Part shown: positions 5,541 to 64,000 of the stretch, piece by piece
Layout of the letters: the number at the start of each line of letters is the position of its first letter
Numbering within the stretch: position 1 is the stretch's first letter
Assembly (NCBI RefSeq): GCF_900155435.1
Contig: NZ_LT700212.1
Coordinates: 1,778,102-1,842,101 of the forward strand
Length of the DNA stretch: 64,000 bases
From: Actinomyces provencensis
Lineage (GTDB): Bacteria; Actinomycetota; Actinomycetes; Actinomycetales; Actinomycetaceae
Direction: 5' to 3'
Notes under the pieces: model-generated
Told to the model about the DNA's origin: nothing
Seen by the model: the letters and a program-made list of their open reading frames with translations, nothing else
Databases searched by the model: none
Translations under genes and position numbers: made by a program

Positions 5541-5630
5541 CACCCCGGACCTTTCCGCACCAGGACAACGAAAACCCCGGGACTCCAGTGGAGCCCCGGG
5601 GTGTCTCGTGGAGATGAGGGGAATCTCCCC
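5541..5630 (-). repeat. ssrA 3'-end attachment-site copy A
   Basis: Minus strand reads GATTCCCCTCATCTCCAC (5608-5625), the T-arm/acceptor end of tmRNA, followed by a GC hairpin with a T run that looks like the native tmRNA terminator. Nearly the same 90 bp recur at 12803-12898. Interpreted as the outer att site of the integrated block; the T-arm half is already degenerate. Confidence 0.7.
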
Positions 5631-5841: not shown

Positions 5842-6588
5842 ATGGCACAGCGAAGCAGCATTGAGTGGACGGAGGTCACCTGGAACCCCGTGACCGGATG
5901 CGACAAGATCTCGCCCGGCTGCGACCACTGCTATGCCCTCGCCTTGGCGAAGCGCCTCAAGGCTATGGGCTCCGACCGGTACCAGGAAGACGGAAACCCG
6001 ATCACCTCCGGTCTTGGCTTCGCCATTCGCTGTCACCCCGATCTTCTCGACTCTCCGAAGAAGTGGAAGCACCCCCGCACCGTCTTCGTGAACTCGATGT
6101 CGGACCTCTTTCATGCCAAGGTGCCCCTGGAGTTCATCAAGGCCGTCTTCGCAACCATCGAAGCCACTCCCCAGCACACCTACCAGGTGCTCACGAAGCG
6201 CGCACGCCGCGCCCGGCTGCTCTCCGACAAGCTCGATTGGCCAAAGAACCTCTGGATGGGCGTCTCGGTCGAGACACAGGACCAGTTCCACCGCATCGAC
6301 GAGCTACGCCGCATCCCGGCAGCTGTCCGTTTCCTCTCCTGCGAACCGCTCCTCGGCTCAATGGAGGGAATCAACCTCGATGCCATCGGATGGGTCATCG
6401 CCGGCGGCGAGTCCGGACCCAACTACCGCCCGATGGAACTCACTTGGGCACGATCAATCCGCGACGCCGCGCTCGCGGCCGAGGTACCGTTCTTCTTCAA
6501 GCAGTGGGGCGGCCGCACGCCGAAGCAGCTTGGCCGCGAGCTCGACGGGGAAGTGTGGGACGAGATGCCATTGCGATCGGCAATCTAG
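5842..6588 (+). CDS. DUF5131 (phage Gp37/Gp68) three-Cys-motif protein
   Basis: 248-residue member of the phage Gp37/Gp68 family. The N-terminal motif 'VTGCDKISPGCDHCYA' gives C20-x6-C27-x2-C30, a radical-SAM-like but non-canonical cysteine cluster that probably binds an iron-sulfur cluster or metal. Further conserved blocks: 'SMSDLFH', 'QVLTKRARR', 'SCEPLLG', 'GGESGPN', 'FFKQWGG'. No Shine-Dalgarno; TACACT at 5830-5835 lies 6 bp before the ATG, so the mRNA may be leaderless. It converges on tcmP, the usual partner of this family, with 7 bp between the stops. GC is lower than the chromosome, consistent with transfer. Reaction unknown. Confidence 0.85.
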   Translation: MAQRSSIEWTEVTWNPVTGCDKISPGCDHCYALALAKRLKAMGSDRYQEDGNPITSGLGFAIRCHPDLLDSPKKWKHPRTVFVNSMSDLFHAKVPLEFIKAVFATIEATPQHTYQVLTKRARRARLLSDKLDWPKNLWMGVSVETQDQFHRIDELRRIPAAVRFLSCEPLLGSMEGINLDAIGWVIAGGESGPNYRPMELTWARSIRDAALAAEVPFFFKQWGGRTPKQLGRELDGEVWDEMPLRSAI

Positions 6589-6595
6589 CAATCTC

Positions 6596-7777
6596 CTATA
6601 GAACAGTCATCGAGAGCTTATGGAGTGAACACCTGTTCCCTCTGGGAATTGGAAGTACCAGACCGTCGCGAGCCAGTTCCTTCCATGCCGCACGCAGATG
6701 CATCTCTCTGGCAGCGCCAAGAGTCTCCCCGTAGACCGCCTCGATCTTGCTCGCCAGCGAGACTGTGGTACCCGTTCGCTCAGACACGAGCTTCTCCAAG
6801 TTCGTCTTGATCTCTGCGATCCAACGCGCTTTGAGCTGATCCTCATCGGACTTGAAGCGAACCTCCTCGAGATCAGGAAAGATGTCGAACGTGCCCGTCA
6901 TCTTCTTCTGCTCAGCCAAGAAGCACGTTCTCCGCCACTCCTCGAGAGCCTTCGAATGAGACTCGACGAACGCCCACGCCGCATCAACGTGACGGAAAAA
7001 GAGGATCAAGTAGAAGATCGGCTGCGTCGTAGGGCTTCGTCGGACGGGCGTCATGATGGAAGAGTAGTGGCTCGTCTCACGCACCCGTTTGGCATACTCC
7101 TTGGCGACATTCCTCGCTCTCTCGGGCGCCGTCGGCCCGTCATCCTTGGTGTAGTCACTGAAGAAGTCCCTCCACCATCGTCCACCGACCACGGTGTCGA
7201 ACGCCTGCAAGGATGCTTCTGACTTCGGGTCACCATCATGCTTTGCTGCGAGGCCGCCAGATCTCCAGAACATTGAGACATTGAAGTTGATTAGTAGCTC
7301 AGTGGGACTGTTGCGGGTTTTCCGAAGGAGTTTCTGGGTGACCACCTCGAAAGGCAGGGCTGTGCCGAAAGGATCGAGAAAGCTCAATAGTGGAAGGCCA
7401 TCCGCCAGATCAAGCACATGATCGACTTGCTCGATCGCCTCATCATTGTGCACTTCGATGTGCTTAAGTCGAGCCTGCTCTGCAAGACACTCGGCGAGCT
7501 CCTCGGCGTAGGCTGAGTTCTTTTCGGTGAAGACACAAGTGATCTCTCGACCGAATTTCTGAACCGTTGTCGCCATATCCAATGCAATGACAGGAGAACC
7601 CTTTTCACCATTGGAATAACGGCCCGGCCCCGCGAAGGCATCAAAGTAGACGCCTCGACCCTCTTCGCTAATTGAGCCCGTCTTCGAGAAGAAGATCAGC
7701 GGATACCGTGAGATGATCCCATGCTTGAAGACTGCGGCGGGCTTCTTATCCGAAAAGAACTCGGAGTTATTTGACAT
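6596..7777 (-). CDS. tcmP: Three-Cys-motif partner protein TcmP, 5' end disrupted
   Basis: 393 residues from ATG 7777. 'VYFDAFAGPGRYSNG' resembles motif I of a Rossmann methyltransferase fold and 'LLSFLDPFGTALPF' a DPPY-like motif IV, both typical of TcmP. The family co-occurs with Gp37/Gp68 proteins such as the convergent neighbour. An IS256-type element lies 2 bp upstream of this ATG. Excising the IS and one copy of its 8-bp target repeat joins the frame in phase to GTG TCA CCG AAG GAC GAG (9257-9233), so the original start was either that GTG or the present ATG served by the AAGGAC upstream. Promoter and ribosome site are now separated, so expression is doubtful. Confidence 0.8.
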   Translation of the reverse strand: MSNNSEFFSDKKPAAVFKHGIISRYPLIFFSKTGSISEEGRGVYFDAFAGPGRYSNGEKGSPVIALDMATTVQKFGREITCVFTEKNSAYAEELAECLAEQARLKHIEVHNDEAIEQVDHVLDLADGLPLLSFLDPFGTALPFEVVTQKLLRKTRNSPTELLINFNVSMFWRSGGLAAKHDGDPKSEASLQAFDTVVGGRWWRDFFSDYTKDDGPTAPERARNVAKEYAKRVRETSHYSSIMTPVRRSPTTQPIFYLILFFRHVDAAWAFVESHSKALEEWRRTCFLAEQKKMTGTFDIFPDLEEVRFKSDEDQLKARWIAEIKTNLEKLVSERTGTTVSLASKIEAVYGETLGAAREMHLRAAWKELARDGLVLPIPRGNRCSLHKLSMTVL

Positions 7778-7787
7778 CAGAATCCAC

Positions 7788-9232
7788 GATCAAGTCCCTG
7801 TTGGTGGTGTAAGTGTCTGTTGTTTCGTTTGGGCTGGTGGGGGTTGGTTTCAGGCTGTGAGGAGGTGGGTGGGGTCGGGGTGGTTGGGGTGGGTGAGTTG
7901 GTCAGTAAGGTCGCGCATGGAGGTCTCTGAGAGGTAGCGGCGTTCCCCGTATTGCCATTCCTCGTTTTGGTCTTGGAGGATGGCTCCGATGAGGCGGGTG
8001 GCGGAGGCGTCGTCGGGGGAGACTTGGACGACGTCGGTGCGGCGTTTGATCTCGCGGTTGAGTCGCTCGATGGGGTTGTGTGGTGCAGATCTTCTGCCAG
8101 TGGGGGCGGGGCTGGTCAGCGAAGGCGGTGAGGTCGACTTCGGCGTCGGTGAGCATCTGGGCGATCTGGGGGAAGGTCGGGGTCAGGGAGGCCACGACCT
8201 GGTGGTAGGCGTCCTTGACGGCCTCTGGGGTGGTCTGGGCGAAGATGGTGGCGATGAGGGCGTTGACGGGCTTGGAGCGGGTGGAGCCCAGGGTCTGGGT
8301 GACGTTGCGAGCGAAGTGGACGCGGCAGCGTTGCCAAGAGGCGCCGGTGAGGATGGCTTTGACGGCGTTCTTGATGCCTTGGTGGGCGTCACTGGTGACG
8401 ACTTGCACTCCCAGTGGGTCAGTGTCGGTTGAGACCTTGAGGCCGCGCTCGCGCAAGGATCGTAGGAACTCCGTCCAGAAGTAGGTGGACTCACTGTCGC
8501 CGATCCTCATGCCCAGGATCTCACGCCTGCCCTGGGCGGAGACGCCGGTGGCGACCACGACCGCTTTGGACACGACATGGCCGGCGTGGCGGACGTCGAC
8601 GTAGGTGGCGTCCAGGAACAGGTACGGGTACCACGTGTGGGACAGGGGACGGGTCAGGAACTCCTCGACCACGGAGTCGATGTCGGCGCAGATCCTTGAG
8701 ACCTGGGACTTCGAGATGCCCGACTCGCATCCCAATGCCTTGACGAGCTCGTCGACCTTGCGGGTGGACACCCCGTTGATCCACGCTTGGCAGATGACGG
8801 CGTAGAGGGCCTTGTCGATCCGCTTGCGGGGGTTGAGGAGGCTGGGGAAGAAGGACCCCTCACGCAGCTTGGGGATGGCCACCACCACGTCTCCTGCCGG
8901 GGTGGACACCGTCTTGTCGCGACTTCCGTTGCGTCGGGTGAGGCGGGACTCGCTGCGCTCATAGCGCCCCGCCCCGATCTTGGTGGTGGCCTCAGCATCG
9001 ATGAGGTCTTGGAGGCCCGCCTCCAACAGTCGACGGAACACGGCGTCTCCTGCAAGGCTCGGGTCGGACAGGACTTCACTGATCAAGGTGGACAGGGCAG
9101 ACTGGTTGCGGGCCATCGTGGGAACACTCCTAGGATTCTTGGTCGAAACTCTGGACACCCACGATGGCCCACCAACACCCCAAGGATGCTCGCTGACCTG
9201 CAGGAATTGCCACCACCCTAAGGGACTCCGCC
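7788..9232 (-). mobile_element. IS256-family insertion sequence
   Basis: 1445 bp. Imperfect inverted repeats GTCCCTgtTGGTGGTG (7794-7809) and its complement (9211-9226) lie 6 bp inside the ends. An 8-bp direct repeat GAATCCAC flanks it exactly (7780-7787 and 9233-9240), matching the 8-9 bp target duplications of this family. It holds one transposase gene, frameshifted, on the minus strand. The intact target repeat suggests recent insertion. Confidence 0.88.
7850..9116 (-). pseudogene. IS256-family transposase, frameshifted before catalytic Glu
   Basis: Start ATG 9116 behind AGGAGTG. 'LFLDATYVDVR' carries the first catalytic Asp and 'VVTSDAHQGIKNAV' the second. At about 8083-8090, just after 'PHWQKICTT', one extra base shifts the frame; the expected NPIERLNREIKRR block with the catalytic Glu continues in the +1 frame to TGA 7850. 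The unshifted frame gives a meaningless Arg/Pro-rich tail to 7902. Without frameshifting the DDE triad is incomplete, so the element is probably immobile unless complemented. A sequencing error in the CACACAACCCC stretch is the alternative. Confidence 0.8.
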
Positions 9233-9257
9233 GAATCCACTCGTCCTTCGGTGACAC

Positions 9258-9479
9258 TCAGAGCTTCGCGAGCAGGTCGGCCGGCTTGTCTGCTGGTTGC
9301 GCGAACAAGTACTCGACGCAACGGTGACACTTCAGGGGTCTCATGGGTGATCCTCTCGCCTAGGACATGTGGTCGACCTAGCCGAGTGGTCGCCCAGTGA
9401 TGATGGTTCACCTCCAATCATCGGTGCATGTGGTGCGTGAGGTGCCTGATTCGTCAGGTGTCGGGCACTTCACGCCATG
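9258..9479. other. Intergenic region with UUCG hairpin
   Basis: No gene seen. CCTGA-TTCG-TCAGG at 9445-9458, nested in a longer AGGTGCC/GGGCACTT pairing, lies just past the stop of the minus-strand peptidase gene and may terminate it. The original upstream region of tcmP is also here. Confidence 0.4.
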
Positions 9480-9896
9480 TCAGGAAGCGTGATCACGGCA
9501 TGCCAGAACGTGGTCGAGCATGAGTTGCTCCTCCGCCGTAAGGCTCTCCAAGCGGGTGAGCAGGGTGTCGACGTCGACCCACAGCTCTTCGGCTGCCTCC
9601 TCCAGGCAGTGAGCCCACACGGCCGCATGACACAACTCCTCCACGGTGATCAGGCGTCGCGCGGCCTCGATCGATACTGCCCGCTCCACTGTCCCAGGCT
9701 GGCACCCATGGTGGTCCCACTCGATGTGCACGAGCTCGTGCGTCAGCGTGCACCGACGCTCGGCCCGTAATTGGTTCCGGGCCATCCATACGTGCCGACC
9801 ATCCGTCGCTCCCAACACAGGGGTCGGCAAGCGATCTGTCCACGAGACGATGATGTCCTTGCGCTCGCGGAGAGTTCGCCATGGGTGCCACGTCAT
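9480..9896 (-). CDS. ImmA/IrrE-family metallo-endopeptidase
   Basis: 138 residues. 'CTLTHELVHIEWDHH' carries the HExxH zinc motif (His53, Glu54, His57) and Glu72 in 'VERAVSIEA' is the likely third ligand. The family cleaves XRE-type repressors, as ImmA does on ICEBs1 and IrrE does on DdrO. It is a bare protease domain with no HTH. Its ATG overlaps the stop of the membrane HIRAN-like gene (ATGA), so the two are coupled, and a divergent XRE regulator pair lies upstream in the same element. Cleavage of that repressor is an inference. Confidence 0.85.
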   Translation of the reverse strand: MTWHPWRTLRERKDIIVSWTDRLPTPVLGATDGRHVWMARNQLRAERRCTLTHELVHIEWDHHGCQPGTVERAVSIEAARRLITVEELCHAAVWAHCLEEAAEELWVDVDTLLTRLESLTAEEQLMLDHVLACRDHAS

Positions 9897-11293
9897 GGCG
9901 GACCCTGTCGGGAACTGTCGGGGTCGTCGGACCGGTCGGCAGGCATCGGTTCGTCGTCCCAGTCCCAGTCGGGTCCAGGGATGACTTCGGTGGGCTTGGG
10001 GATCTCGGGCCCGAGGGCGTTGAGCCAGGCGGCCCCGACCTCGCCGGCGTCAGCGCAGTAGAGGACGACGTCGGCTTTGATGGCGGTGCCTTGGACTTCG
10101 GCTCGGCACACGGCGAGCTTGCCGCGGGCTTCGATGTACTTCACCAGGGGCAGCATGTTTTTCGACTGGACGTCGGAGAGGATGCCGACCCGGTGCCCGT
10201 CGATCTCGACCTGGACGATCTCGGGCGCCGAGCGGGCGCGGACTTCGATGATGGACCGCAGGACAGCGGCCACGTGATTCACTCCATCCGGGATCACCAG
10301 CTTGGAGAGGACATCGAGGTGATCCTCTTCCTTGGTGACCTGACGCTTGCGGCCGTTGGGGATGATGACGTGTGACGTAGAGGGGAGGCCATTGGAGGGT
10401 GTGAGTTCACTCGGGTTGGGCAGGTGGACTCTAGCGTTGTAGTGCTCGCCGTACTCGGCGTCATGTCCCCAGACATTGCCTGGTACTCGCAGGTCAAAGC
10501 CCTCCGCTTGCAGATCGTGGAGGATGGGGCCCCATGTGGGGGTCTCATCGTCAGGTAGGTATCCGATGTGCTGTCCTCGGAGGAACGCCGCGACAGCATG
10601 CCCGTTCGACGAAAAGGGGTTGTCCCCGTCGTACGTCAGCGTGATTGGCTCGTCGAGTCGGGCCCCGCTGCCGTACTGGCTGAACTCCGGCAAGGGACTG
10701 AGAAACCGCCGCAGTGTCTCCCGGTGGTACCAGACTCCGTTGATGTCGGACCAGGTGACGCCACGTCCCCAAGGGTCCAGCTGCTCACCCTGGGGAGTTG
10801 CAGGCACCCAGTCGCCGCCCACCATGTGCCCACTGCCCTGACTCCCCGCGGCAGACGCGACAGGCGGAGCGAAAGACTCTGCCCGCGAACGGCGCGGAAC
10901 TCCACTGTCACCCCGTGTGGCCGTCCGGTTGGCGTCCCTATCTGCGGTCCTCATCTCCTCGGCAGCCATGCGCTTCTCGCGCACCTTGGTCTCCCTATCA
11001 GCGACGGCAAAACGACGCTCTCGACGCCGCGCTTCCCTCTTCATGGCCCGCTTCTTCGAGGCCTCCGCTTGCGCCTCCTTCTGGGCTGGCGTCGGCTCCG
11101 GAAGGACCTTCCCAGACCCAACGAGGAGGGCGAGTCCGAGGATGAGAAAGACGATGACCATGACGACACCATCGCCACGCGTAGCTGTCTCACTCGGAAC
11201 GATCACGACGATCAGACCAAGCAAGGCAAGGAGGCCACTCGCCAAGGCAGCCAGGAACAACACAACTCCGAAGAGACCCCGAAGGAACCTCAT
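9893..11293 (-). CDS. Membrane-anchored protein with HIRAN-like domain
   Basis: 466 residues. Two hydrophobic helices at about residues 5-32 and 42-60 are followed by a highly charged Arg/Lys/Glu segment (about 70-130), probably coiled coil. At about 215-265, 'YDGDNPFSSNGHAVAAF' then 'GQHIGYLPDD' resembles the HIRAN pattern (DNPxDxNAVAV...GYLP). A second module near 355-425, 'VQVEIDGHRVGILSDVQS', looks like a related beta fold common in actinobacterial proteins of unknown role. The gene is coupled to the ImmA/IrrE gene. Role unknown; it may sense membrane or DNA damage cues for the protease. Confidence 0.6.
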   Translation of the reverse strand: MRFLRGLFGVVLFLAALASGLLALLGLIVVIVPSETATRGDGVVMVIVFLILGLALLVGSGKVLPEPTPAQKEAQAEASKKRAMKREARRRERRFAVADRETKVREKRMAAEEMRTADRDANRTATRGDSGVPRRSRAESFAPPVASAAGSQGSGHMVGGDWVPATPQGEQLDPWGRGVTWSDINGVWYHRETLRRFLSPLPEFSQYGSGARLDEPITLTYDGDNPFSSNGHAVAAFLRGQHIGYLPDDETPTWGPILHDLQAEGFDLRVPGNVWGHDAEYGEHYNARVHLPNPSELTPSNGLPSTSHVIIPNGRKRQVTKEEDHLDVLSKLVIPDGVNHVAAVLRSIIEVRARSAPEIVQVEIDGHRVGILSDVQSKNMLPLVKYIEARGKLAVCRAEVQGTAIKADVVLYCADAGEVGAAWLNALGPEIPKPTEVIPGPDWDWDDEPMPADRSDDPDSSRQGPP

Positions 11294-11338: not shown

Positions 11339-11855
11339 TCAGCGGTCCTGTGGTTCTTCGGCAGCATCACTGCTGGTCTGGGCATCGTCATACTGCGGCA
11401 GTCTTCGCGCCGCGAGGATCTCGCGCGCCCGCTGCAACCCAGCTGCTCGCGCCACCGACTCAACCTCATCCAGCTCTGCCTCGTTCAGACCCGCCACGGC
11501 GCTCGCGGGCAGAGTGACGACCCTGCCGCTCTCGATGTCCTGGGACTAGGGCGGGGCGCGAGGTCCGCGTCGACGATCTGGATGCAGCCGACTGCCCGCT
11601 GCCGAGCGGCTCCAAGGTTGGTTCACCGCCGTCGAGGACGGCTTGGGCCGAGCCGCGTGTCCAACCTAGTGCGCGGTCCAGCGCCCAGAGAGTTGCGCGC
11701 GAGTATGACGGTCTCCTCCCATTCTCGATGTCATTGAGGGTTCGCGTCGAGATCTGCGATGCATCCGCTAGCGCGCGCCCAGTGGCGATGCCAACCTCCA
11801 GGCGCCTTGCACGGACAAGCTCGCCGAGCGACACCCTGTCCTTCTCGTTCGTCAT
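11339..11855 (-). pseudogene. XRE-family repressor, probably frameshifted
   Basis: ATG 11855 opens an HTH_3/XRE domain: 'ALADASQISTRTLNDIENGR' with helix-turn-helix spacing, then 'ALDRALGWTRGSAQAVLDGG'. In this frame the protein runs to 11466 with a low-complexity tail. Another frame past about 11550 gives a more natural C-terminus, 'DIESGRVVTLPASAVAGL' through 'QTSSDAAEEPQDR', ending at TGA 11339. The simplest reading is an indel near 11545-11560 in a protein of about 170 residues. The HTH half may still be made. Divergent from the XRE gene at 12040. Confidence 0.65.
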
Positions 11856-11879
11856 GCGACCAGAGTGGCGGAAGCGACA

Positions 11880-11931
11880 GGAAACAGCAATCAGGCCACG
11901 CAGGAAACATCTAGGCGACACGCCGGAAACA
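11880..11931. promoter_or_regulatory. Three direct GGAAACA repeats, candidate operator
   Basis: GGAAACA at 11880-11886, 11903-11909 and 11925-11931, spaced 23 and 22 bp (about two helical turns), in the divergent region just upstream of the minus-strand XRE gene. Same-face spacing suits cooperative repressor binding and autoregulation. No binding evidence beyond the pattern. Confidence 0.5.
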
Positions 11932-12039: not shown

Positions 12040-12432
12040 ATGAGCAAGCGACTCGCGGGCGGTTCGCCCGCTGAAGAGGTTCGAGTTGGCGCGACGCTCC
12101 GCACCATTCGCCAGATTCGCGGTATGACAGCTGACGAGCTCACCAATGAGCTACTCGTCTCCGCATCGCACGTGCGGAACATCGAGCTCGGCCACAAGTC
12201 CGCCTCCCAGGTCCTCCTCGCGAAGGCTGCCGAGGTGCTTGAGGTGCCCCAGGTCGCCCTCGTCCGCGAGGGGTACTTCGACCGAGAGGCAGCGGAGCGG
12301 GAGGCAGAAGTCCGGCGCGTCACGAAGGAGCGTGACGATGCGCTCAGCCAGATCGAGGCCATGTGCGCCCAGCTCGACGAGCTGCGTTCCGGCTTCGAGG
12401 CCCTCCAGGTGCCGGAGGGGGTGGCGTCATGA
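12040..12432 (+). CDS. XRE-family transcriptional regulator with coiled-coil tail
   Basis: 130 residues. HTH_3 domain at about 15-70 ('TLRTIRQIRGMTADEL' ... 'SASHVRNIELGHK') and a charged heptad-rich C-terminus (about 80-120) probably for dimerisation. Divergent from the frameshifted repressor and coupled through an ATGA overlap to the next small gene. It is likely a lysogeny-type regulator of element 1. Specific promoter targets are not visible. Confidence 0.8.
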   Translation: MSKRLAGGSPAEEVRVGATLRTIRQIRGMTADELTNELLVSASHVRNIELGHKSASQVLLAKAAEVLEVPQVALVREGYFDREAAEREAEVRRVTKERDDALSQIEAMCAQLDELRSGFEALQVPEGVAS

Positions 12433-12802: not shown

Positions 12803-12898
12803 CACCCCGGACCCACCTTGGACCTTTCCGCACCAGGACAACGAAAACCCCGGGACTCCAGTGGAGTCCCGGGGTGTCTCGTGGAGATGGGGGGAATC
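12803..12898 (-). repeat. ssrA 3'-end attachment-site copy B
   Basis: Near-identical to copy A (5541-5630): the same GC terminator hairpin and, on the minus strand, GATTCCCCCCATCTCCAC (12881-12898), exactly the acceptor/T-stem end of tmRNA. It contains a 10-bp insertion (CACCTTGGAC region) relative to A. It marks the junction between elements 1 and 2. Confidence 0.75.
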
Positions 12899-18728: not shown

Positions 18729-21700
18729 TCATCTCCGGTAAAAACTGCTGATACGTGCATTCGTGTTCGTGACGTCGATGGCAACTGCCTCGGCAGTCTC
18801 TTCGATGTAGGCGTCGAACTCGCGGTCCTTGACGACGAGGCGGAGACGCTGCGGATACCTGGGGGCAACTTGGGTCGAGGTCGTCGGGGTCGCGGTGGTG
18901 CCTCCGTCTGCGTAGCCACGCAGGTGGCTCTTCGGGATGATGACCTGGTCGAACTGGTCGGCGACCATCCCGAGGATCTGTTCGCTGCGTGCCCGCTTGG
19001 ATGGGGCAAGCGGGATGTACGCTTCCCCACCGGTCTCGTCCTCGGCCCAGAGTCGGTAGGCGCCTGCCGGGGCGATCTGGGCGACGTGGTTCTCCCCGCC
19101 GTTGGCGAACGCCTGGATGGCGGTGCTGCCGAGGAACTTCACGAGCCCGCCGTTGGCTTCGGTGTAGCCCGTCATGCCGTTCTTGCCGCCGCCGAGCTGC
19201 ACGTGGTCCGTGTAGACGGTGATGGTCTTCTCGCGGGGCAGCCCGTCCAGGGTGGTGCGGATCGACTTGATGATCCCCGACGCCTTGTCGAAGGCCGTGA
19301 TGTTGGTGGAGACCTCGCTGGGGATCAGCAGGTAGCTGTCGGCCAGCCTGTTCGCCGCCGTCTCGTTCATCCCCATACGGGTGGCGGTGTCGACGAAGCT
19401 CTTGCGGAGGCCGACCATGGATCCGCTCAACTCTTCCTGGGTTGCGCCCTGTTCCTTGAGGGAGTTGATGACGTCCCATGCTCGGCTTGCGGTGTCCAGC
19501 ATGGTGTCGTTGGCGAGCCTGCCTGCTTCGGACTGTAGGTTCCACGCGTCCTTGGAGCCGGTGACCGCTGTGCCGAGCCCTGCGACGGCGTTGCCTGCCT
19601 CGTCGGTGTAGCCGTTGAGTTTCTGGAGGACGTCTGCGTTGTCGGCGAGCTGCTCGTTCCACTTCCCCTGGGCTTCGTCGGCGCTCATGGCGACCCCGGC
19701 GGCTTCGCGCTGCTTGTCGATGAGGTCCGCGAGGGAGTCAGCCTGCTGCTGGGCGGCGTCTGACCCGTTGAGTGAAGCGGCGTTGTACTCGTCCTGGGCG
19801 GCCTTCGCGTCGGCGAGCTGCCCCTTCTGGGTGCCGAGTTCCTTGTTGACGTCACCGATGGCTTTGAGGGCCTCGTAGTTGGTCTGTCCCTGGTAGGACT
19901 GCTTCTCGGCGTAGGCGTCGAGGACCCCGTTGACGCGCTCTTGGGCGTCGGCGTTGCCGAGGATCGCTTCGGTGAGGTCGCGGACGTTGCCGCCCATGTC
20001 CCGGTAGGAGTCGGCGGCGTCGGAATCGGCGACGCGCTTGGCAACCAAGGACTCGGTGTTCTCGGTGATCGCGCCGGTCTCCTCGTCGAGGGACTGGCGG
20101 AAGTCATCGGTCTGGCGCTTCGCCTCAGCCTTCTTCGCGGCGTAGGCAGCGACAACCCCGGTCAGCACGGCCAGCCCCGCGCCGACGAGGTTGGCGGGCG
20201 TCAGGATCCCCGTGAGGGCCGTGCCGAGCTCTGTTGCGGCGCTCTTCGCGAGGATCGCGGGTTTCGAGATGCCGGTCTCCAGGTTGAGGAGGCTGGTGGC
20301 CTGTGAGACGTCGCGGATGTTCCCGATGACGCCGGCGAGGCTGGTGCCGAGGTTGATGACACTGGTCTTGGCGTCGCCGAGTGGCCCGTGGAAGGCCACC
20401 AGCGCGCTGACGGCGGCGAGGAGTGGCGTGGGGAGGTTGGCGACCCACCCGGCGAGGTCCGCGACCCCGGACACCAGGGGGAGGACGGCGCCTGTGGCGT
20501 CGACGAGCATCGGGACCAGCGGTGAAAGATCAGCGAGGAAGTCACCCGCCCCCTTGGCTGCGACCGTCAGCCCAGGCGCCAGGGCATCGATGGCCTCCAT
20601 GGCAAGGTCGGCCATGCCCTTCCCTGCCTGCTGCAGTTGGGGGATGGCGGGGGCGAGGGCATCCGTGAACGCGGATCCCACCTTGCGGAGCTCGGGGCTG
20701 CTGGCGACCAGGGCGGTCACGCCAACGAGGACAGGGCCCATGCCTTCGGCCAGCTTCCCCAGACCGGGGACAGGCTTCAGGCCGAGGGTCAGGAGGGCGG
20801 TGGTCGCACCGTTGACGAGGGGCGTGTAGGCGGCGAGCTTGTCGACCTGGGTCAGCATCTTCTCGATGCTGAACTTCTTGGCGACGTCGTTGGCCTTGTC
20901 GAGCCCGTCTGTGACCAGCTGGAAGGCGGGGCCAGCCCGGTCGACGAGTTCCCCCATGCCGGAAGCGACTTCCTTCTGGACGACGCGCATCATGTCCGCG
21001 ACCTGGTTGCCCCATTCGACGGCCTTGCCGCCCCCGTTGGGGTCGATGAAGGGGGCGGAGAGGTCCGCGCCCATGTCTCGCCAGGCCGCGGTGATCCGGT
21101 CGATGGTGCCCGTCCACTGCTGCTTGAGCTTGTCGGTGGTGCCCCCGAACTTCTGGGTCATGCCGGTGGTGAGCATGTCGATGAACTGTTCGGCGGAGAT
21201 CTGCCCGTCGGAGATCATCTGGCGGATCTCGGATCCGGTCTTGCCCATCTGCGCGCCGACCAGGGTGGCCGCGTCCACGCCTCGCTGGCCGAGCTGCATG
21301 AGGTCCTGGCCGGTCACCTTCCCGGCTGCCTGGATTTGGGCAAGCACGTAGGTGATCTCGGAGAGGTCCTGGGCGGAGCCGCCCGTTGCCGCCACCGCGT
21401 TCTGGACGGCGTCGAGGGTGGGGACCACGTGCTCGGCGGCCATGCCGAAGGCCAACAACTGCTGCTGGCCCTTGATGAAGAGGTCCTTCCCGAAGGGTGA
21501 CTTGGAGGTCATCTCGTTGAGTTCAGCCATCTGCGCGTTGACCTTCTCCTGGGAACCGAGAATGGTCGTGAGGGCAACGCGGCTGGACTGCTGCAAGACG
21601 TTGTAGTTCGCTCCGGTCTTGAGCAGTGCCACGCCCATGGTGGTGGCGACGGCTGTGCCTGCGGTGAGCGCGGTGGCCACGACCTGGCCGGCGCCCTTCG

Positions 21701-21809
21701 CGAGGCTGCCGAGAGTGCCGAGGGATCCCTTGGCGCGGCCGAGGCCCGCGTTGAACTGGGTGTCGTCGAGGGTGAGGTAGGCGGCGAGCTCGCCGACGTT
21801 CATTGCCAT
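18729..21809 (-). CDS. Phage tail tape-measure protein
   Basis: 1026 residues. The N-terminus (about 1-250) is the tape-measure N-terminal domain: 'SPFGKDLFIKGQQQLLAFG', 'DLSEITYVLAQIQAAGKVTG', 'WTGTIDRITAAWRDMGADL'. A long hydrophobic helical middle with TM-like stretches (about 330-560) and coiled-coil segments (about 560-790) follow. Tape measures set tail length in siphoviruses and span the tail tube. No tail tube, chaperone or baseplate gene is recognised beside it, which is unusual. Start ATG 21809 with GGACAGG upstream. Confidence 0.88.
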   Translation of the reverse strand: MAMNVGELAAYLTLDDTQFNAGLGRAKGSLGTLGSLAKGAGQVVATALTAGTAVATTMGVALLKTGANYNVLQQSSRVALTTILGSQEKVNAQMAELNEMTSKSPFGKDLFIKGQQQLLAFGMAAEHVVPTLDAVQNAVAATGGSAQDLSEITYVLAQIQAAGKVTGQDLMQLGQRGVDAATLVGAQMGKTGSEIRQMISDGQISAEQFIDMLTTGMTQKFGGTTDKLKQQWTGTIDRITAAWRDMGADLSAPFIDPNGGGKAVEWGNQVADMMRVVQKEVASGMGELVDRAGPAFQLVTDGLDKANDVAKKFSIEKMLTQVDKLAAYTPLVNGATTALLTLGLKPVPGLGKLAEGMGPVLVGVTALVASSPELRKVGSAFTDALAPAIPQLQQAGKGMADLAMEAIDALAPGLTVAAKGAGDFLADLSPLVPMLVDATGAVLPLVSGVADLAGWVANLPTPLLAAVSALVAFHGPLGDAKTSVINLGTSLAGVIGNIRDVSQATSLLNLETGISKPAILAKSAATELGTALTGILTPANLVGAGLAVLTGVVAAYAAKKAEAKRQTDDFRQSLDEETGAITENTESLVAKRVADSDAADSYRDMGGNVRDLTEAILGNADAQERVNGVLDAYAEKQSYQGQTNYEALKAIGDVNKELGTQKGQLADAKAAQDEYNAASLNGSDAAQQQADSLADLIDKQREAAGVAMSADEAQGKWNEQLADNADVLQKLNGYTDEAGNAVAGLGTAVTGSKDAWNLQSEAGRLANDTMLDTASRAWDVINSLKEQGATQEELSGSMVGLRKSFVDTATRMGMNETAANRLADSYLLIPSEVSTNITAFDKASGIIKSIRTTLDGLPREKTITVYTDHVQLGGGKNGMTGYTEANGGLVKFLGSTAIQAFANGGENHVAQIAPAGAYRLWAEDETGGEAYIPLAPSKRARSEQILGMVADQFDQVIIPKSHLRGYADGGTTATPTTSTQVAPRYPQRLRLVVKDREFDAYIEETAEAVAIDVTNTNARISSFYRR

Positions 21810-27031: not shown

Positions 27032-27487
27032 TCAGACGCCGCCGATGCGACGCTTCGCTCCCAAGAGTACACGCAACTCACCTAGAGTCACGTAGCCCCG
27101 CCCAGCATCTCGAAGAGTGTCGAGTGCCCACACCAAGTTCTCCCAGCGGACAGGCACGGGGCTCCCACACTTCCTGCAATCGAGGTGGAGCCGTGAGCGT
27201 GCCTCCTCAGGAAGCACCCCTCTCCCGCCCACCTTGCGTCCCCGCCTCGACCCTCCCACAACCGAGCGAAGGTCGTCTCCAACCAACAGATCAGTCGCAG
27301 GAGAGGCTTCTTCGGATGGAAGCCCATCGGCGTCACGTTGTTGCTGATGGAATAGAGACATGGGTGACCACACTTCTCGTTCGCCTTCGTCAAACAAGCC
27401 ATAGGTCGCGATCCTGCCCGGCCCGTGAGGATGCGTGTCGGTTCCATCGCACCAGATCTCTATCTGATGGAGTCGTGCCGCTGTCAT
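27032..27487 (-). CDS. Hypothetical protein downstream of integrase
   Basis: 151 residues. ATG overlaps the integrase stop (ATGA). The N-half 'IEIWCDGTDTHPHGPGRIA' and a C-terminal 'LDCRKCGSPVPVRWENLVWA' with CxxC suggest a small metal-binding fold. No family recognised; probably co-translated with the integrase. Confidence 0.65.
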   Translation of the reverse strand: MTAARLHQIEIWCDGTDTHPHGPGRIATYGLFDEGEREVWSPMSLFHQQQRDADGLPSEEASPATDLLVGDDLRSVVGGSRRGRKVGGRGVLPEEARSRLHLDCRKCGSPVPVRWENLVWALDTLRDAGRGYVTLGELRVLLGAKRRIGGV

Positions 27488-28674
27488 GAGTCCTCACTCC
27501 CGATGATGTCGTTGAGGCGGTCGGTGATGTCCCGATCGCGTTCGGCGCTCGCCCGCTGGTAGCGCATGGCCACCTCCACGTCCTTGTGCCCGCCTCGGGC
27601 CATGATGTCCGCTGTCGTGGCCCCGGCCCGGGCGTACTCGGTGAGGCCCACCGCGCGGAGGTCGTGGAACCTGAGGCCAGGTGCCAGGTCCTTGCGGGCT
27701 CTCCACCATGCGAGGTCGATGGTGTTCGGCGCGGTCGGCTGAGTCGGGATCCGCGGCGAGGGGAACACCGGAGACTCCGGGCCAGGGCCCACGAACTTGT
27801 CCAGATGGGCGATGACCGCTGGGACCATGCTCGCGGGGATCGCCACGGTGCGCCTGCTCCCGGCCTTCGGAGGCCCATAGCGCGACGGGGATGCCTTGGC
27901 CATCCACTGGCGGTCGACGGTGACTGTGGCCTTGGTGGTGTTCTCCAGGTGGGCGAAGTCGCGGCGTTGGAGGCCGAGGATCTCGCCCTTGCGCATGTCA
28001 CACCATGTGGCCAGGGGAACCACGAGGGCCAACCATTCGGGCATGGCGGCCGTCAGTGCGCGCACGGTGGCGGGGGTGATCATCTCGAAGCGACCGGTCT
28101 TGTCGGATCTCTGGTGGTCCCCCACTTCCTCATGGAAGGGAGATGCGGTGAGTCCACCTGCATGGTGGCGGACCGCGGCATTGAACATGGCGCGCAGGGC
28201 GAGCGCGGTGTTTCGTCGAGCGGAAGGAGCGTCAATGCCTCCGAGGACGGCTGCAATCTGCTCTGGTGTCACGTCTCCCAAGCGGAGGTCTCCGAGGGTG
28301 TCGAGGACGTGGGCGCCGAGAGAGGACCTTCGGGTGCGCCTGGTTGAGGGGGAGACCGGCTGTCCCTTGCGCCGACCCGACTGGACGGGGAGGGCAAGCC
28401 ACTTGTCGGCCCACTCCCTCACGGTGACGTCCTCGACTTCCCGCTCCTTCACTGCAGCTCGAGCGCGGCGCCGCACTTCGACCGGGGGAACGAACGTGCC
28501 TGCAGCTCTTTGGCCCTTGGCGATGGCCAGGGCCGTGCGCGCGTCGGTGAGGGCGTCGAACTGGCCGATGAAGTACTGGCGGCCGTTGACGGTGAGGCGC
28601 ACGCGGTAGCCGCCCTGCCATTCGCTGATGCCGCGTTCGATGGTCCTCTTCTTGCGCCTGGCCGGGACTGTCAT
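27484..28674 (-). CDS. int: Tyrosine site-specific integrase
   Basis: About 396 residues. N-terminal arm-binding domain ('EWQGGYRVRLTVNGRQYFIG'), core-binding SAM-like domain (about 85-180), catalytic domain with Arg in 'CDMRKGEILGLQRRD', HxxR in 'RFHDLRAVGLTEYARAG', His in 'MARGGHKDVE' and nucleophile Tyr in 'VAMRYQRAS'. Start ATG 28674 with GGAGG; an upstream ATG at 28701 lacks one. It sits 185 bp from the ssrA 3' end, the expected attachment site for element 2. Confidence 0.93.
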   Translation of the reverse strand: MTVPARRKKRTIERGISEWQGGYRVRLTVNGRQYFIGQFDALTDARTALAIAKGQRAAGTFVPPVEVRRRARAAVKEREVEDVTVREWADKWLALPVQSGRRKGQPVSPSTRRTRRSSLGAHVLDTLGDLRLGDVTPEQIAAVLGGIDAPSARRNTALALRAMFNAAVRHHAGGLTASPFHEEVGDHQRSDKTGRFEMITPATVRALTAAMPEWLALVVPLATWCDMRKGEILGLQRRDFAHLENTTKATVTVDRQWMAKASPSRYGPPKAGSRRTVAIPASMVPAVIAHLDKFVGPGPESPVFPSPRIPTQPTAPNTIDLAWWRARKDLAPGLRFHDLRAVGLTEYARAGATTADIMARGGHKDVEVAMRYQRASAERDRDITDRLNDIIGSEDS

Positions 28675-28703
28675 GTCCGCCTCCTGCCCCCGGTGCGACA
28701 CGC

Positions 28704-28848: not shown

Positions 28849-28857
28849 TCACCCGTT

Positions 28858-28875
28858 GTGGAGATGGGGGGAATC
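28858..28875 (-). repeat. ssrA att core, copy C (intact gene)
   Basis: GATTCCCCCCATCTCCAC on the minus strand, identical to copy B over 18 bp, forming the T-arm/acceptor end of the functional tmRNA. The integration crossover for element 2 should lie within or near this block. Confidence 0.75.
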
Positions 28876-29231
28876 GAACCCCCGTCCGACGGCCGGCCCC
28901 GAGGTCTTCTCCGGGCACAGTCTGCAAGCTATTTCTCGGCCCCCGACGTCATGCAGACATGCCTGCCGGATGGGCTCAGTCAACTGAGTGTCGAAGTCGA
29001 CCCGCTGACGAGGTCGACAACCAGTGGCTCCCTGAATGACGCCAGGATCCGGGCTGGGAGCACCACCCGGGCTGACGGACTAAAGGTTCAGACTGCTGTC
29101 AGGCAGCAAGAACGTAGTCGGTGCGATTCTGTTCGGCACCTATTGGTTTGCACGCATCGTTCACGAGCTGAGCGCGCGTCCTCGACCCGCTTCCCCTCGA
29201 TCGACGACCGCCGTCGAAACCGATCATCCCC
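28859..29231 (-). ncRNA. ssrA: Transfer-messenger RNA (tmRNA)
   Basis: About 373 nt. 5' GGGGATG pairs with 3' CATCTCC to form the alanine-type acceptor stem, and the T arm is GGGGG-TTCGATT-CCCCC. Proteolysis tag at 29137-29099: GCC resume codon, AEQNRTDYVLAA then TGA; the LAA end is the ClpXP signal. Upstream AAUAGGU matches the resume-determining region. The genome reads CAA rather than CCA after the discriminator, so CCA must be added. It rescues stalled ribosomes with SmpB, encoded 430 bp upstream. Confidence 0.93.
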
Positions 29232-29310: not shown

Positions 29311-29326
29311 TGGGCCACGTACCGGC

Positions 29327-63120: not shown

Positions 63121-63182
63121 CGAAGGCCTTTCTGGCGGGGTGCGTCGTTGCGGGCCCGTCATCGGGACCCCAGCCAAAATTA

Positions 63183-64000
63183 GGCTCTTGTGACTGATCT
63201 GTGGGTGGTTGGGCGGGTCTGGACGGGTGCACGCCGTTCTCTCGTCTATGTTCCTGGCTTGTCGAGAGTCAGTAACGAAACAGGGAGAACGGCGTGCAGG
63301 AAACCACCCTATGGCGAGGGCTGCTGGGAGTCGAGAAGACCACGGTCGTCGAGCAGGTCGAGTATGACGCGGACGAGGGCATCGTGGTCGCGTCGGTGCG
63401 TGCGTCGGGGAAGCTGAGGCCTCGGTGCGGGAGGTGCGGCAGACGTGCTGCCCGTTACGACCTCGGTGAGGGGCTGCGGCGGTGGAGGGCGCTGGACCTG
63501 GGCCCTGTCCCGGTGTGGCTGGAAGCGGAGGCGCCGCGTGTGAAGTGTACTGAGCATGGGGTGATCGTCGCGCAGGTGCCGTGGGCGCGTCACGGTGCCG
63601 GACACACGAGGTTCTTCGACGATCAGGTCGCGTGGTTGGCGACAGTGTCCTCGAAGTCTGCCGTGAGGGAGTTGATGCGCATCGCGTGGCGCACGGTCGG
63701 AGCGATCGTTGCCCGCGTGTGGGACGACACCGCCGCCGAGACCGACCTGTTCGCCGGGCTCACCCGCATCGGGATCGATGAGATCAGCTACAAGAAGGGC
63801 CACAAGTACCTCACCGTCGTCGTCTGTCACGACACCGGCCGACTCGTGTGGGCAGCGCCTGGGCGGGACAAGAAGACGCTGCGAGCCTTCTTTGACGCCC
63901 TGGAGGCCTCCGGGGCGGGCAGGTGCGCCCAGGTCACGCATGTCAGTGCGGACGGGGCGGACTGGATCGGCGACGTCGTGGCGGAGAAGTGCCCTCATGC
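63183..64000 (+). mobile_element. ISL3-family insertion sequence, truncated by window edge
   Basis: Left end begins near GGCTCTTGTGACTG at 63183, just after an AT-rich AAAATTA that could be part of a target repeat. It contains a transposase gene that runs off the window, so the right end is not visible. Confidence 0.7.
63294..64000 (+). CDS. ISL3-family transposase (partial)
   Basis: N-terminal 235 residues from GTG 63294 (AGGGAG upstream). Zinc-ribbon 'RPRCGRCGRRAARYDLG' plus 'VKCTEHG', then the start of the DDE domain 'GLTRIGIDEISYKKGHKYLT' (first Asp) and 'VSADGADWIGDVVAEKCP' (second Asp region). The C-terminus with the Glu is beyond the window. Confidence 0.9.
   Translation, partial: MQETTLWRGLLGVEKTTVVEQVEYDADEGIVVASVRASGKLRPRCGRCGRRAARYDLGEGLRRWRALDLGPVPVWLEAEAPRVKCTEHGVIVAQVPWARHGAGHTRFFDDQVAWLATVSSKSAVRELMRIAWRTVGAIVARVWDDTAAETDLFAGLTRIGIDEISYKKGHKYLTVVVCHDTGRLVWAAPGRDKKTLRAFFDALEASGAGRCAQVTHVSADGADWIGDVVAEKCPH

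What the first reader, a model, noticed from the sequence alone, without database searches (positions are those of the whole stretch)
5842..9257. DUF5131 / TcmP pair: an uncharacterised two-gene system in the island
DUF5131 has a CX6CX2C cluster reminiscent of radical SAM enzymes; TcmP has FAGPG and DPFG motifs like nucleic-acid methyltransferases. The two families are known to co-occur but, to my knowledge, have no established function. Convergent placement in an accessory block next to regulators and an ImmA-type protease suggests a defence or nucleic-acid modification role. Here tcmP is interrupted, so the system may be disarmed.
Basis: partly seen in the sequence, partly recalled or inferred. 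Interest (0 to 1): 0.6.

Follow-up and report, generated by a model that had tools for sequence, protein, structure and literature searches.

The report
Mobile methyltransferase and radical-SAM gene pair
Two neighbouring genes, carried here in a phage-derived island, look like a working pair of enzymes that chemically alter RNA or DNA; the pair travels between bacteria on phages and plasmids and was already listed by others as a possible anti-phage system, but its action is still unproven.

Summary
The pair is real: DUF5131 at 5842-6588 (+) and TcmP at 6596-7777 (-), convergent. One detail is not borne out: tcmP is not visibly broken. An IS256-family element (7788-9232, with an 8-bp target duplication) ends 10 bp before its ATG; the 393-aa ORF starts where its nearest relatives start and keeps the catalytic residues, so expression may be lost, not the enzyme. 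Linkage is far above chance: 26 of 396 phylum genomes hold both (3.7 expected), and all 80 examined loci closest to this DUF5131 have TcmP within 2.6 kb, in three orientations. The DUF5131 model is a radical-SAM fold nearest spore photoproduct lyase (Z 13.9). TcmP is nearest the rRNA m6A methyltransferase RlmJ (Z 15.6), with RlmJ's K18, H19, S100, E118 and D164 matched. DUF5131 is conserved (median identity 71%), TcmP is not (21%), and partners have been exchanged. Three Gordonia phages examined carry the same convergent pair beside the repressor; elsewhere restriction genes are frequent neighbours. PADLOC already lists such pairs as candidates PDC-M30/M41. Best reading: a mobile two-enzyme nucleic-acid modification system, methyltransferase choosing the target, probably for immunity. 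Activity, substrate and phage phenotype are untested.

The parts
5842..6588 (+). DUF5131 (PF07505; phage Gp37/Gp68) radical-SAM-like protein, 248 aa
   Evidence: PF07505 332.8 bits, PADLOC PDC-M41B E 3.7e-107 and PDC-M30B E 6.1e-102; AF2 pLDDT 90.2, nearest fold spore photoproduct lyase Z 13.9
5899..5931 (+). codons of the three cysteines C20, C27, C30 (CX6CX2C)
   Evidence: invariant in 33 of 33 aligned DUF5131; an intein-like insert sits directly before the third Cys in relative L074
6596..7777 (-). tcmP, three-Cys-motif partner, class I methyltransferase, 393 aa ORF
   Evidence: TIGR04474 123.5 bits; AF2 pLDDT 92.3, nearest fold RlmJ Z 15.6; start matches nearest relatives
7364..7378 (-). 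tcmP motif IV LDPFG (D135 opposite RlmJ D164)
   Evidence: D135 in 62 of 62 aligned TcmPs; hhalign global alignment to RlmJ
7724..7726 (-). tcmP K18 codon (opposite catalytic RlmJ K18)
   Evidence: K18 in 62 of 62 aligned TcmPs; alignments; RlmJ K18A inactive (PMC3814359 passages)
7788..9232 (-). IS256-family insertion element, 10 bp upstream of the tcmP start
   Evidence: NF033543 E 5.8e-84; further near-identical copies in the genome with their flanks
7780..7787 (.). target-site duplication, left copy
   Evidence: same 8 bases at 9233-9240; copies L002 and L003 also show duplications
9233..9240 (.). target-site duplication, right copy
9480..9896 (-). ImmA-like metalloprotease
   Evidence: phrog_87 metallo-protease E 1.2e-15
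11466..11921 (-). HTH protein, repressor-like
   Evidence: PF13560 E 2.6e-7
12040..12432 (+). HTH protein, divergent to the former (Cro-like position)
   Evidence: PF13560 E 8.1e-7
5607..5625 (+). att-like core (ssrA 3'-end sequence), 1 mismatch
   Evidence: 4 such sites in the window, 0.09 expected
12880..12898 (+). att-like core, exact
28857..28875 (+). att-like core at the 3' end of the tmRNA gene, 1 mismatch
27484..28701 (-). tyrosine integrase next to ssrA
   Evidence: phrog_1 E 1.3e-48
18729..21809 (-). phage tail tape measure protein of the same island
   Evidence: phrog_12798 E 9.7e-24

Best explanation
The pair is a horizontally mobile, two-enzyme nucleic-acid modification system. TcmP is an RlmJ-like, SAM-dependent base N-methyltransferase that selects and methylates a base (an exocyclic amine, by analogy adenine N6). 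DUF5131 is a radical-SAM enzyme of the spore-photoproduct-lyase-like fold that carries out a second, radical reaction on the same nucleic acid. DUF5131 is the conserved engine; TcmP is the fast-diverging, exchangeable target-choosing part. In the window and in the Gordonia phages examined it sits in a prophage lysogeny region, where it would be made in the lysogen and most likely protects the element or its host against other phages or nucleases. Shown: homology, predicted folds, conserved catalytic residues, linkage, partner exchange, context. Inferred: nucleic acid as shared substrate, order of reactions, immunity as purpose. In this genome both reading frames are intact, but an IS256-family element has cut tcmP off from its upstream region.
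For: Linkage: 26 of 396 genomes hold both, 3.7 expected, Fisher p about 4e-22 without correction for kinship (own genome left out: 25 of 395, 3.6 expected); 25 have them within 3 kb: 9 convergent, 10 DUF5131-first, 6 TcmP-first. In the 80 loci kept of 223 relatives found, TcmP lies within 2.6 kb in 80 of 80: 55 convergent, 20 DUF5131-first, 3 TcmP-first, 2 farther than 1.5 kb; linkage that survives changes of orientation argues for joint function. TcmP: AF2 pLDDT 92.3; RlmJ Z 15.6, rmsd 3.3, 213 aligned; Foldseek top hits Trm1 E 8.8e-6 and RlmJ 2.3e-5. RlmJ K18, H19, S100, E118, D164 match TcmP K18 (62/62), H19 (60/62), S61 (62/62), E85 (60/62), D135 (62/62). DUF5131: AF2 pLDDT 90.2; SPL Z 13.9, then viperin 11.7, RlmN 11.1; NCBIfam radical SAM mobile pair protein A E 2.7e-19, though below its cut-off; intein-like insert at the third Cys. 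Exchange: 77 loci, DUF5131 median identity 0.71, TcmP 0.21; L098/L100 have DUF5131 91% and TcmP 19% identical. Context: same convergent pair beside the repressor in three Gordonia phages; 131 neighbour ORFs match 102 PADLOC families against 27 for 131 random actinobacterial ORFs; neighbours include N6_Mtase, GmrSD, Mrr, Type ISP; no match to either family in the 34 other genomes of the genus searched.
Against: No activity, substrate or phage phenotype is shown by any search. DUF5131 occurs without a detected TcmP in 19 of 28 viral contigs (L182 ends at the contig edge) and 13 of 39 genomes (G389 has a sub-threshold TcmP next door); TcmP without DUF5131 over its cut-off in 12 of 38, two of these (G159, G261) with a sub-threshold DUF5131 next door. 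A prophage setting is not general: homologs of five integrase queries in 12 of 80 loci, of three ImmA queries in 2 of 80. The cysteine spacing is not the canonical CX3CX2C. TcmP's lead for RlmJ is modest: the next unlike methyltransferases (YecO, histamine methyltransferase) score Z 14.2. TcmP lacks RlmJ's second motif-IV proline and its inserted helical subdomain, and RlmJ's catalytic Y4 and H6 have no conserved counterpart; P136 is S or T in 11 of 62. Sequence-only similarity is weak (E about 0.1; hhalign probability 25%), and of three MAFFT variants none puts D135 on D164 and one also misplaces S61 and E85. Loci were picked by DUF5131 identity, which narrows the DUF5131 range. The neighbour count is of families, not proteins, and R-M proteins hit many models.
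Confidence: 0.42

Rival explanations
1. Self-protection rather than attack: the pair modifies the element's own DNA or the host's tRNA/rRNA so that restriction enzymes or anticodon nucleases no longer cut, i.e. an anti-restriction or anti-nuclease trait.
For: No conserved nuclease accompanies the pair: the nearest neighbours differ from locus to locus (no Pfam family in more than 4 of 131), which fits modification without restriction. It is carried by phages and plasmids that meet R-M systems.
Against: It is often found near chromosomal R-M genes, where anti-restriction is less expected. PADLOC's PDC class was found by embedding in defence systems (label seen; method as described in a PMC10855318 passage).
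Confidence: 0.2
2. Nucleic-acid repair: DUF5131 is a photoproduct-lyase-like repair enzyme and TcmP a companion that recognises or methylates the damaged site.
For: Best fold match of DUF5131 is spore photoproduct lyase, 2.2 Z units above the next family.
Against: TcmP matches RNA base methyltransferases best and varies widely, unlike a repair factor with a fixed lesion. SPL's CX3CX2C (recalled) is not kept.
Confidence: 0.12
3. Antiviral small molecule: DUF5131 acts like viperin on a nucleotide and TcmP methylates the product.
For: Viperin is the second fold match (Z 11.7).
Against: SPL fits better. RlmJ acts on a base within RNA (PMC3814359 passages); the same is recalled for Trm1. I know of no viperin that needs a methyltransferase partner (recalled).
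Confidence: 0.08

Closest known systems
PADLOC candidate systems PDC-M30 and PDC-M41
   Same: The A and B models match TcmP-like and DUF5131 proteins
   Different: Candidates only. Window DUF5131 fits both B models; window TcmP fits the A models only weakly (best E 3.8e-11, residues 11-167)
NCBIfam TIGR04474 three-Cys-motif partner protein TcmP
   Same: Window protein is well over the cut-off
   Different: The family name states partnership, no function
RlmJ, 23S rRNA m6A2030 methyltransferase
   Same: Nearest solved fold; catalytic K18/D164 and cofactor residues H19, S100, E118 matched
   Different: DPFG instead of DPPY, no inserted helical subdomain, an extra C-terminal region, Y4/H6 tail not conserved
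Trm1, tRNA G26 methyltransferase
   Same: Foldseek top hit for TcmP (E 8.8e-6); a DPFG motif IV is recalled for Trm1, not tested
   Different: VIA Z only 13.2 at rmsd 6.4
Spore photoproduct lyase (radical SAM)
   Same: Nearest solved fold for DUF5131 (Z 13.9, rmsd 2.8, 195 aligned)
   Different: Cysteine spacing CX6CX2C, shorter protein, 12-14% identity
Hna helicase locus of Sinorhizobium meliloti
   Same: SMa2243 TcmP is listed directly after hna (SMa2245), a phage-defence gene, in a table grouped by putative transcription unit (PMC12445080 passages)
   Different: Whether a DUF5131 lies there was not looked at; TcmP's role is not examined in the passages seen

Membership tests
TcmP (TIGR04474) | score over the curated cut-off of 53 bits | tested here: met
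   123.5 bits, residues 16-276 on model 4-261 of 263
DUF5131 (PF07505) | score over the gathering cut-off of 28.9 bits | tested here: met
   332.8 bits, residues 5-243 on model 2-243 of 243
PADLOC PDC-M30 / PDC-M41 | A and B genes both matching and adjacent under PADLOC's own rules | tested here: inconclusive
   B models E 3.7e-107 and 6.1e-102, A models E 3.8e-11 at partial coverage; PADLOC itself was not run
Radical SAM superfamily | TIM-barrel fold of radical-SAM enzymes | tested here: met
   predicted model: SPL Z 13.9, viperin 11.7, RlmN 11.1, TYW1 9.7
Radical SAM superfamily | canonical CX3CX2C cluster motif | tested here: not met
   CX6CX2C in 33 of 33; three cysteines are present, so it may work like one
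Radical SAM superfamily | [4Fe-4S] cluster and reductive SAM cleavage | not testable with these tools
   needs spectroscopy
RlmJ family | match to an RlmJ family model in Pfam or NCBIfam | tested here: not met
   no such family among hits at E 0.1
RlmJ family | catalytic K18 and D164 and cofactor residues H19, S100, E118 | tested here: met
   K18 and H19 agree in hhalign and all three MAFFT variants; S61 and E85 in hhalign and two of three; D135 on D164 in the hhalign global alignment only, one residue off in two MAFFT variants and unaligned in the third
RlmJ family | catalytic Y4 and H6 of the N-terminal tail | tested here: not met
   no conserved counterpart in A5
RlmJ family | inserted helical subdomain between motif I and the GSP motif | tested here: not met
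   about RlmJ 52-96 has no counterpart in the global alignment
Anti-phage defence system | lowers phage infection | not testable with these tools
   only context and a correlative report (PDC-M30 in 32 of 100 P. aeruginosa strains, 68.8% of them phage-resistant, PMC10855318 passage)

The most novel reading that the evidence does not exclude
A new kind of modular immunity: one conserved radical-SAM engine (DUF5131) that works with interchangeable, fast-evolving RlmJ-type methyltransferases (TcmP), which aim it at different RNA or DNA sites, so that prophages and plasmids install a radical-made base hypermodification as superinfection immunity.
Probability: 0.2. Interest if true: 0.82.

Novelty: new member of a known kind. 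Interest (0 to 1): 0.45.

Why it matters
DUF5131/TcmP is widespread on plasmids, phages and defence islands and, as far as my searches show, has no assigned chemistry. In the library searched (no preprints), DUF5131 occurs in no paper, and the terms three-Cys-motif partner, Gp37 Gp68, PF07505 and TIGR04474 in four (the spelling with a slash could not be searched). The work here turns it into a concrete hypothesis with named residues: a base methyltransferase with RlmJ's catalytic pair plus a lyase-like radical-SAM enzyme, with the methyltransferase as the exchangeable part. That is directly testable by nucleoside mass spectrometry and phage assays in laboratory strains.

Tried and rejected
Rejected: tcmP as a broken gene (with the reservation that some relatives are annotated with longer N-termini). 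A second tcmP copy in the genome (G000:C1:1182240-1182578): it is a 5' fragment in a stretch bounded by single N letters (L012 11889 and 12569), so most likely a scaffolding artefact. The IS256-family copy as part of the system: it is a generic repeat with other near-identical copies. Viperin-like reading ranked below SPL-like.

Led nowhere: phmmer of both proteins against PDB sequences (none at E 1); profile of DUF5131 against PDB (one chance-level hit, E 1.6); single-protein TcmP scan of viral contigs (none); paper searches for TcmP alone (unrelated uses of the letters in the rows listed) and for radical SAM with phage defence and related terms (none). The fold lists have only the rows shown; families not listed are not excluded.

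Limits: co-occurrence is not corrected for phylogeny. The loci are the best 80 of 223 and were chosen by DUF5131 identity. The neighbour survey used my own ORF picker and 131 of the 157 nearest-neighbour ORFs (307 picked in all); of the 26 left out by hand, 22 were 80-102 aa and four 108-185 aa. The control was 131 of 135 ORFs picked from 20 stretches of 6 genomes; it holds 46,324 residues against 39,629 for the neighbours. A5 holds the window and 61 relatives; 84 references were prepared and the rest left out by hand. Partner identities were computed on 77 of 80 loci; 3 were dropped by length. Integrase homologs of five query proteins were found in 12 of 80 genome loci, 6 of 28 viral loci and 0 of 20 control stretches; homologs of three ImmA queries in 2 of 80, 3 of 28 and 0 of 20; these are lower bounds.
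Full report
What is there. DUF5131 lies at 5842-6588 (+, 248 aa) and TcmP at 6596-7777 (-, 393 aa), tail to tail with 7 bp between the stop codons. PF07505 scores 332.8 bits; TIGR04474 scores 123.5 bits against a cut-off of 53. The three cysteines of DUF5131 (C20, C27, C30) are invariant in the 33 aligned sequences.

The 'interruption'. Between tcmP and the ImmA-like gene lies an IS256-family element at 7788-9232. The genome holds further near-identical copies. The window copy has an 8-bp duplication on its two sides, and copies L002 and L003 have their own. It ends 10 bp before the tcmP ATG. In the relatives L103 and L120 the only ATG lies at the same distance, 17 residues before the invariant lysine K18, and K18, H19, S61, E85 and D135 are all present in the window. 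So the enzyme looks intact. Some relatives are annotated with longer N-termini (L081, L082), so loss of a non-conserved extension cannot be fully excluded. The upstream region is displaced, and a sigma-70-type scan of 7500-9500 found no promoter, so silence at the level of expression is possible but untested.

The island. The sequence CGTGGAGATGGGGGGAATC, which occurs with one mismatch at the 3' end of the tmRNA gene (28858-29231), occurs four times within 3 mismatches, at 5607, 12880, 28857 and 29326 (0.09 expected). The first two copies lie in 107-nt direct repeats. An integrase (phrog_1, E 1.3e-48), a primase-polymerase and a tape measure protein lie between 12880 and 28857. I read this as one or two phage-derived elements at ssrA; the pair, the ImmA-like protease and the HTH genes fill the 5.6-12.9 kb segment. 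In the 34 other genomes of the genus that were searched neither family has a match at E 0.001, so the pair was probably acquired recently.

The same arrangement in phages. Gordonia phages Fairfaxidum, Jablanski and Easley carry DUF5131 and a methyltransferase of this family in the same convergent order, beside a metalloprotease or peptidase and integrase on one side and the immunity repressor on the other; in Jablanski two further genes lie between TcmP and the repressor (both proteins confirmed by my searches). DUF5131 is 69.4% (Fairfaxidum) and 69.8% (Easley) identical to the window's. BaxterFox has DUF5131 at 69% and, in the convergent TcmP slot, a protein that matches PDC-M41A (E 1.4e-20) and my TcmP profile (E 4e-66). 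Mycobacteriophage TChen has DUF5131 in another setting, with no TcmP annotated in the 8.9 kb seen. On plasmids, TcmP relatives were found in 33 records, 23 of them Streptomyces, and DUF5131 relatives in 332; three plasmid pairs were viewed.

Is the linkage more than chance? In 396 genomes of the phylum, the window's own included, TcmP passes its cut-off in 38 and DUF5131 in 39; 26 hold both where 3.7 are expected, and 25 of these have the two within 3 kb. Kinship between genomes was not corrected for. In the 80 loci closest to the window's DUF5131 (the best 80 of 223), a TcmP lies within 2.6 kb in all 80: 55 convergent, 20 co-directional with DUF5131 first, 3 with TcmP first, 2 beyond 1.5 kb. 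Against this, 19 of 28 viral contigs have DUF5131 without a detected TcmP, as do 13 of 39 genomes, and 12 of 38 TcmP genomes lack DUF5131 over its cut-off.

Folds. The DUF5131 model (pLDDT 90.2) is nearest to spore photoproduct lyase: Foldseek E 1e-4 and Z 13.9 over 195 residues at 2.8 A, ahead of viperin (11.7), RlmN (11.1) and TYW1 (9.7). The TcmP model (pLDDT 92.3) is nearest to RlmJ: Z 15.6 over 213 residues at 3.3 A; the lead is modest, with YecO and histamine methyltransferase at 14.2. Foldseek ranks Trm1 and RlmJ first and second. Aligned with E. coli RlmJ, TcmP K18 and H19 fall on RlmJ K18 and H19 in every alignment made. S61 falls on S100 and E85 on E118 in the hhalign global alignment and two of three MAFFT variants. 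D135 falls on D164 in the hhalign global alignment only; two MAFFT variants are one residue off and one leaves it unaligned. In RlmJ, K18 and D164 are catalytic, and H19, S100, E118 and D164 contact the cofactor (PMC3814359, passages). K18, D135, H19, S61 and E85 are kept in 62, 62, 60, 62 and 60 of 62 TcmPs. TcmP is therefore expected to be an active base methyltransferase. It is not an RlmJ: no RlmJ family model is hit, motif IV is DPFG, RlmJ's Y4 and H6 are not conserved, and the inserted subdomain is missing.

A constant part and a variable part. Over 77 of the 80 loci, DUF5131 pairs have a median identity of 0.71 and TcmP pairs 0.21. The two identity matrices correlate (r 0.48, 0 of 2000 permutations as high), but there are clear exchanges: L098 and L100 have DUF5131 91% identical and TcmP 19% identical; L132 and L171 show 90% and 19%. 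Choosing loci by DUF5131 narrows its range, but does not produce such discordant pairs. I read TcmP as the part that chooses the target; this is inference.

An independent sign that the cysteines matter: in one relative (L074) an in-frame insert with a LAGLIDADG_3 domain interrupts DUF5131 exactly before the third cysteine, with intein-like ends by eye. Inteins favour such catalytic positions (recalled).

Neighbourhood. The nearest neighbours of the 80 loci (131 of 157 nearest ORFs) include N6_Mtase 4, GmrSD_N 4, Eco57I 4, HNH 4, Mrr_cat 3 and Type_ISP_C 2, and match 102 PADLOC families at E 1e-10. 131 random actinobacterial ORFs picked the same way match 27. The random set also hits single defence-type families, so the contrast is one of degree. 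In L122 a helicase matching PDC-S28 (E 4e-269) sits between the two genes. Integrase homologs were found in 12 of 80 loci and ImmA homologs in 2 of 80, so the phage lysogeny setting of the window is not the general one.

What is known. PADLOC-DB lists such pairs as candidates PDC-M30 and PDC-M41. PDC-M30 is reported in 32 of 100 P. aeruginosa strains, 68.8% of them phage-resistant (PMC10855318, passages), and twice in PA14 (PMC11878078, passages); this is correlation only. S. meliloti tcmP (SMa2243) is listed with hna, a defence gene (PMC12445080, passages). In the held library DUF5131 appears in no paper and the other names searched in four (I read passages of two of them). No preprints are held, so a functional study may exist elsewhere.

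Conclusion. The pair is a mobile two-enzyme system whose most likely work is base methylation followed by radical chemistry on nucleic acid, with a probable role in immunity or self-protection. The chemistry class is fairly well supported (about 0.6 that both act on nucleic acid), the immunity role less (about 0.4). The window's copy is an ordinary member with an insertion element next to it, not a visibly broken gene.

Noticed in passing
L074:1483-3453 (relative G265): DUF5131 carries an in-frame intein-like insert with a LAGLIDADG_3 domain directly before the third cysteine of the CX6CX2C motif.
   Followed up: partly
L012 11889-12569 (G000:C1 about 1181888-1182568): A second copy of the IS256-family end plus about the first 124 codons of tcmP, bounded by single N letters and followed by 400 bases 99% identical to window 63174-63573; looks like a scaffolding artefact.
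   Followed up: partly
window 5607, 12880, 28857, 29326: Four copies of an ssrA 3'-end att-like core point to stacked or nested integrations at the tmRNA gene; a second tmRNA-3'-end-like stretch lies upstream of the intact tmRNA at 29326.
   Followed up: partly
window about 8090 (IS256-family transposase, 7902-9257): The transposase model match stops at position 301 of 338, and by eye the conserved tail continues in another frame; the full copy in L012 reads the same, so the copies here may be frameshifted.
   Followed up: no
L122 4218-8744: TcmP, a PDC-S28-type helicase and DUF5131 lie in one row, a possible three-gene version.
   Followed up: no
L083 3759-7161 (Rhodococcus plasmid pUSK13_1): One DUF5131 followed by two different TcmP genes, beside a zeta toxin family gene.
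   Followed up: no
L077 4968-5930 (Gordonia phage Jablanski gp44): Between repressor and pair lies a DUF4429/DUF2510 protein with a faint, sub-threshold match to the DarA N-terminal domain.
   Followed up: no
window 9893-11293: A 466-aa protein between the ImmA-like protease and the repressor-like gene has no significant Pfam, NCBIfam or PHROGs family.
   Followed up: no
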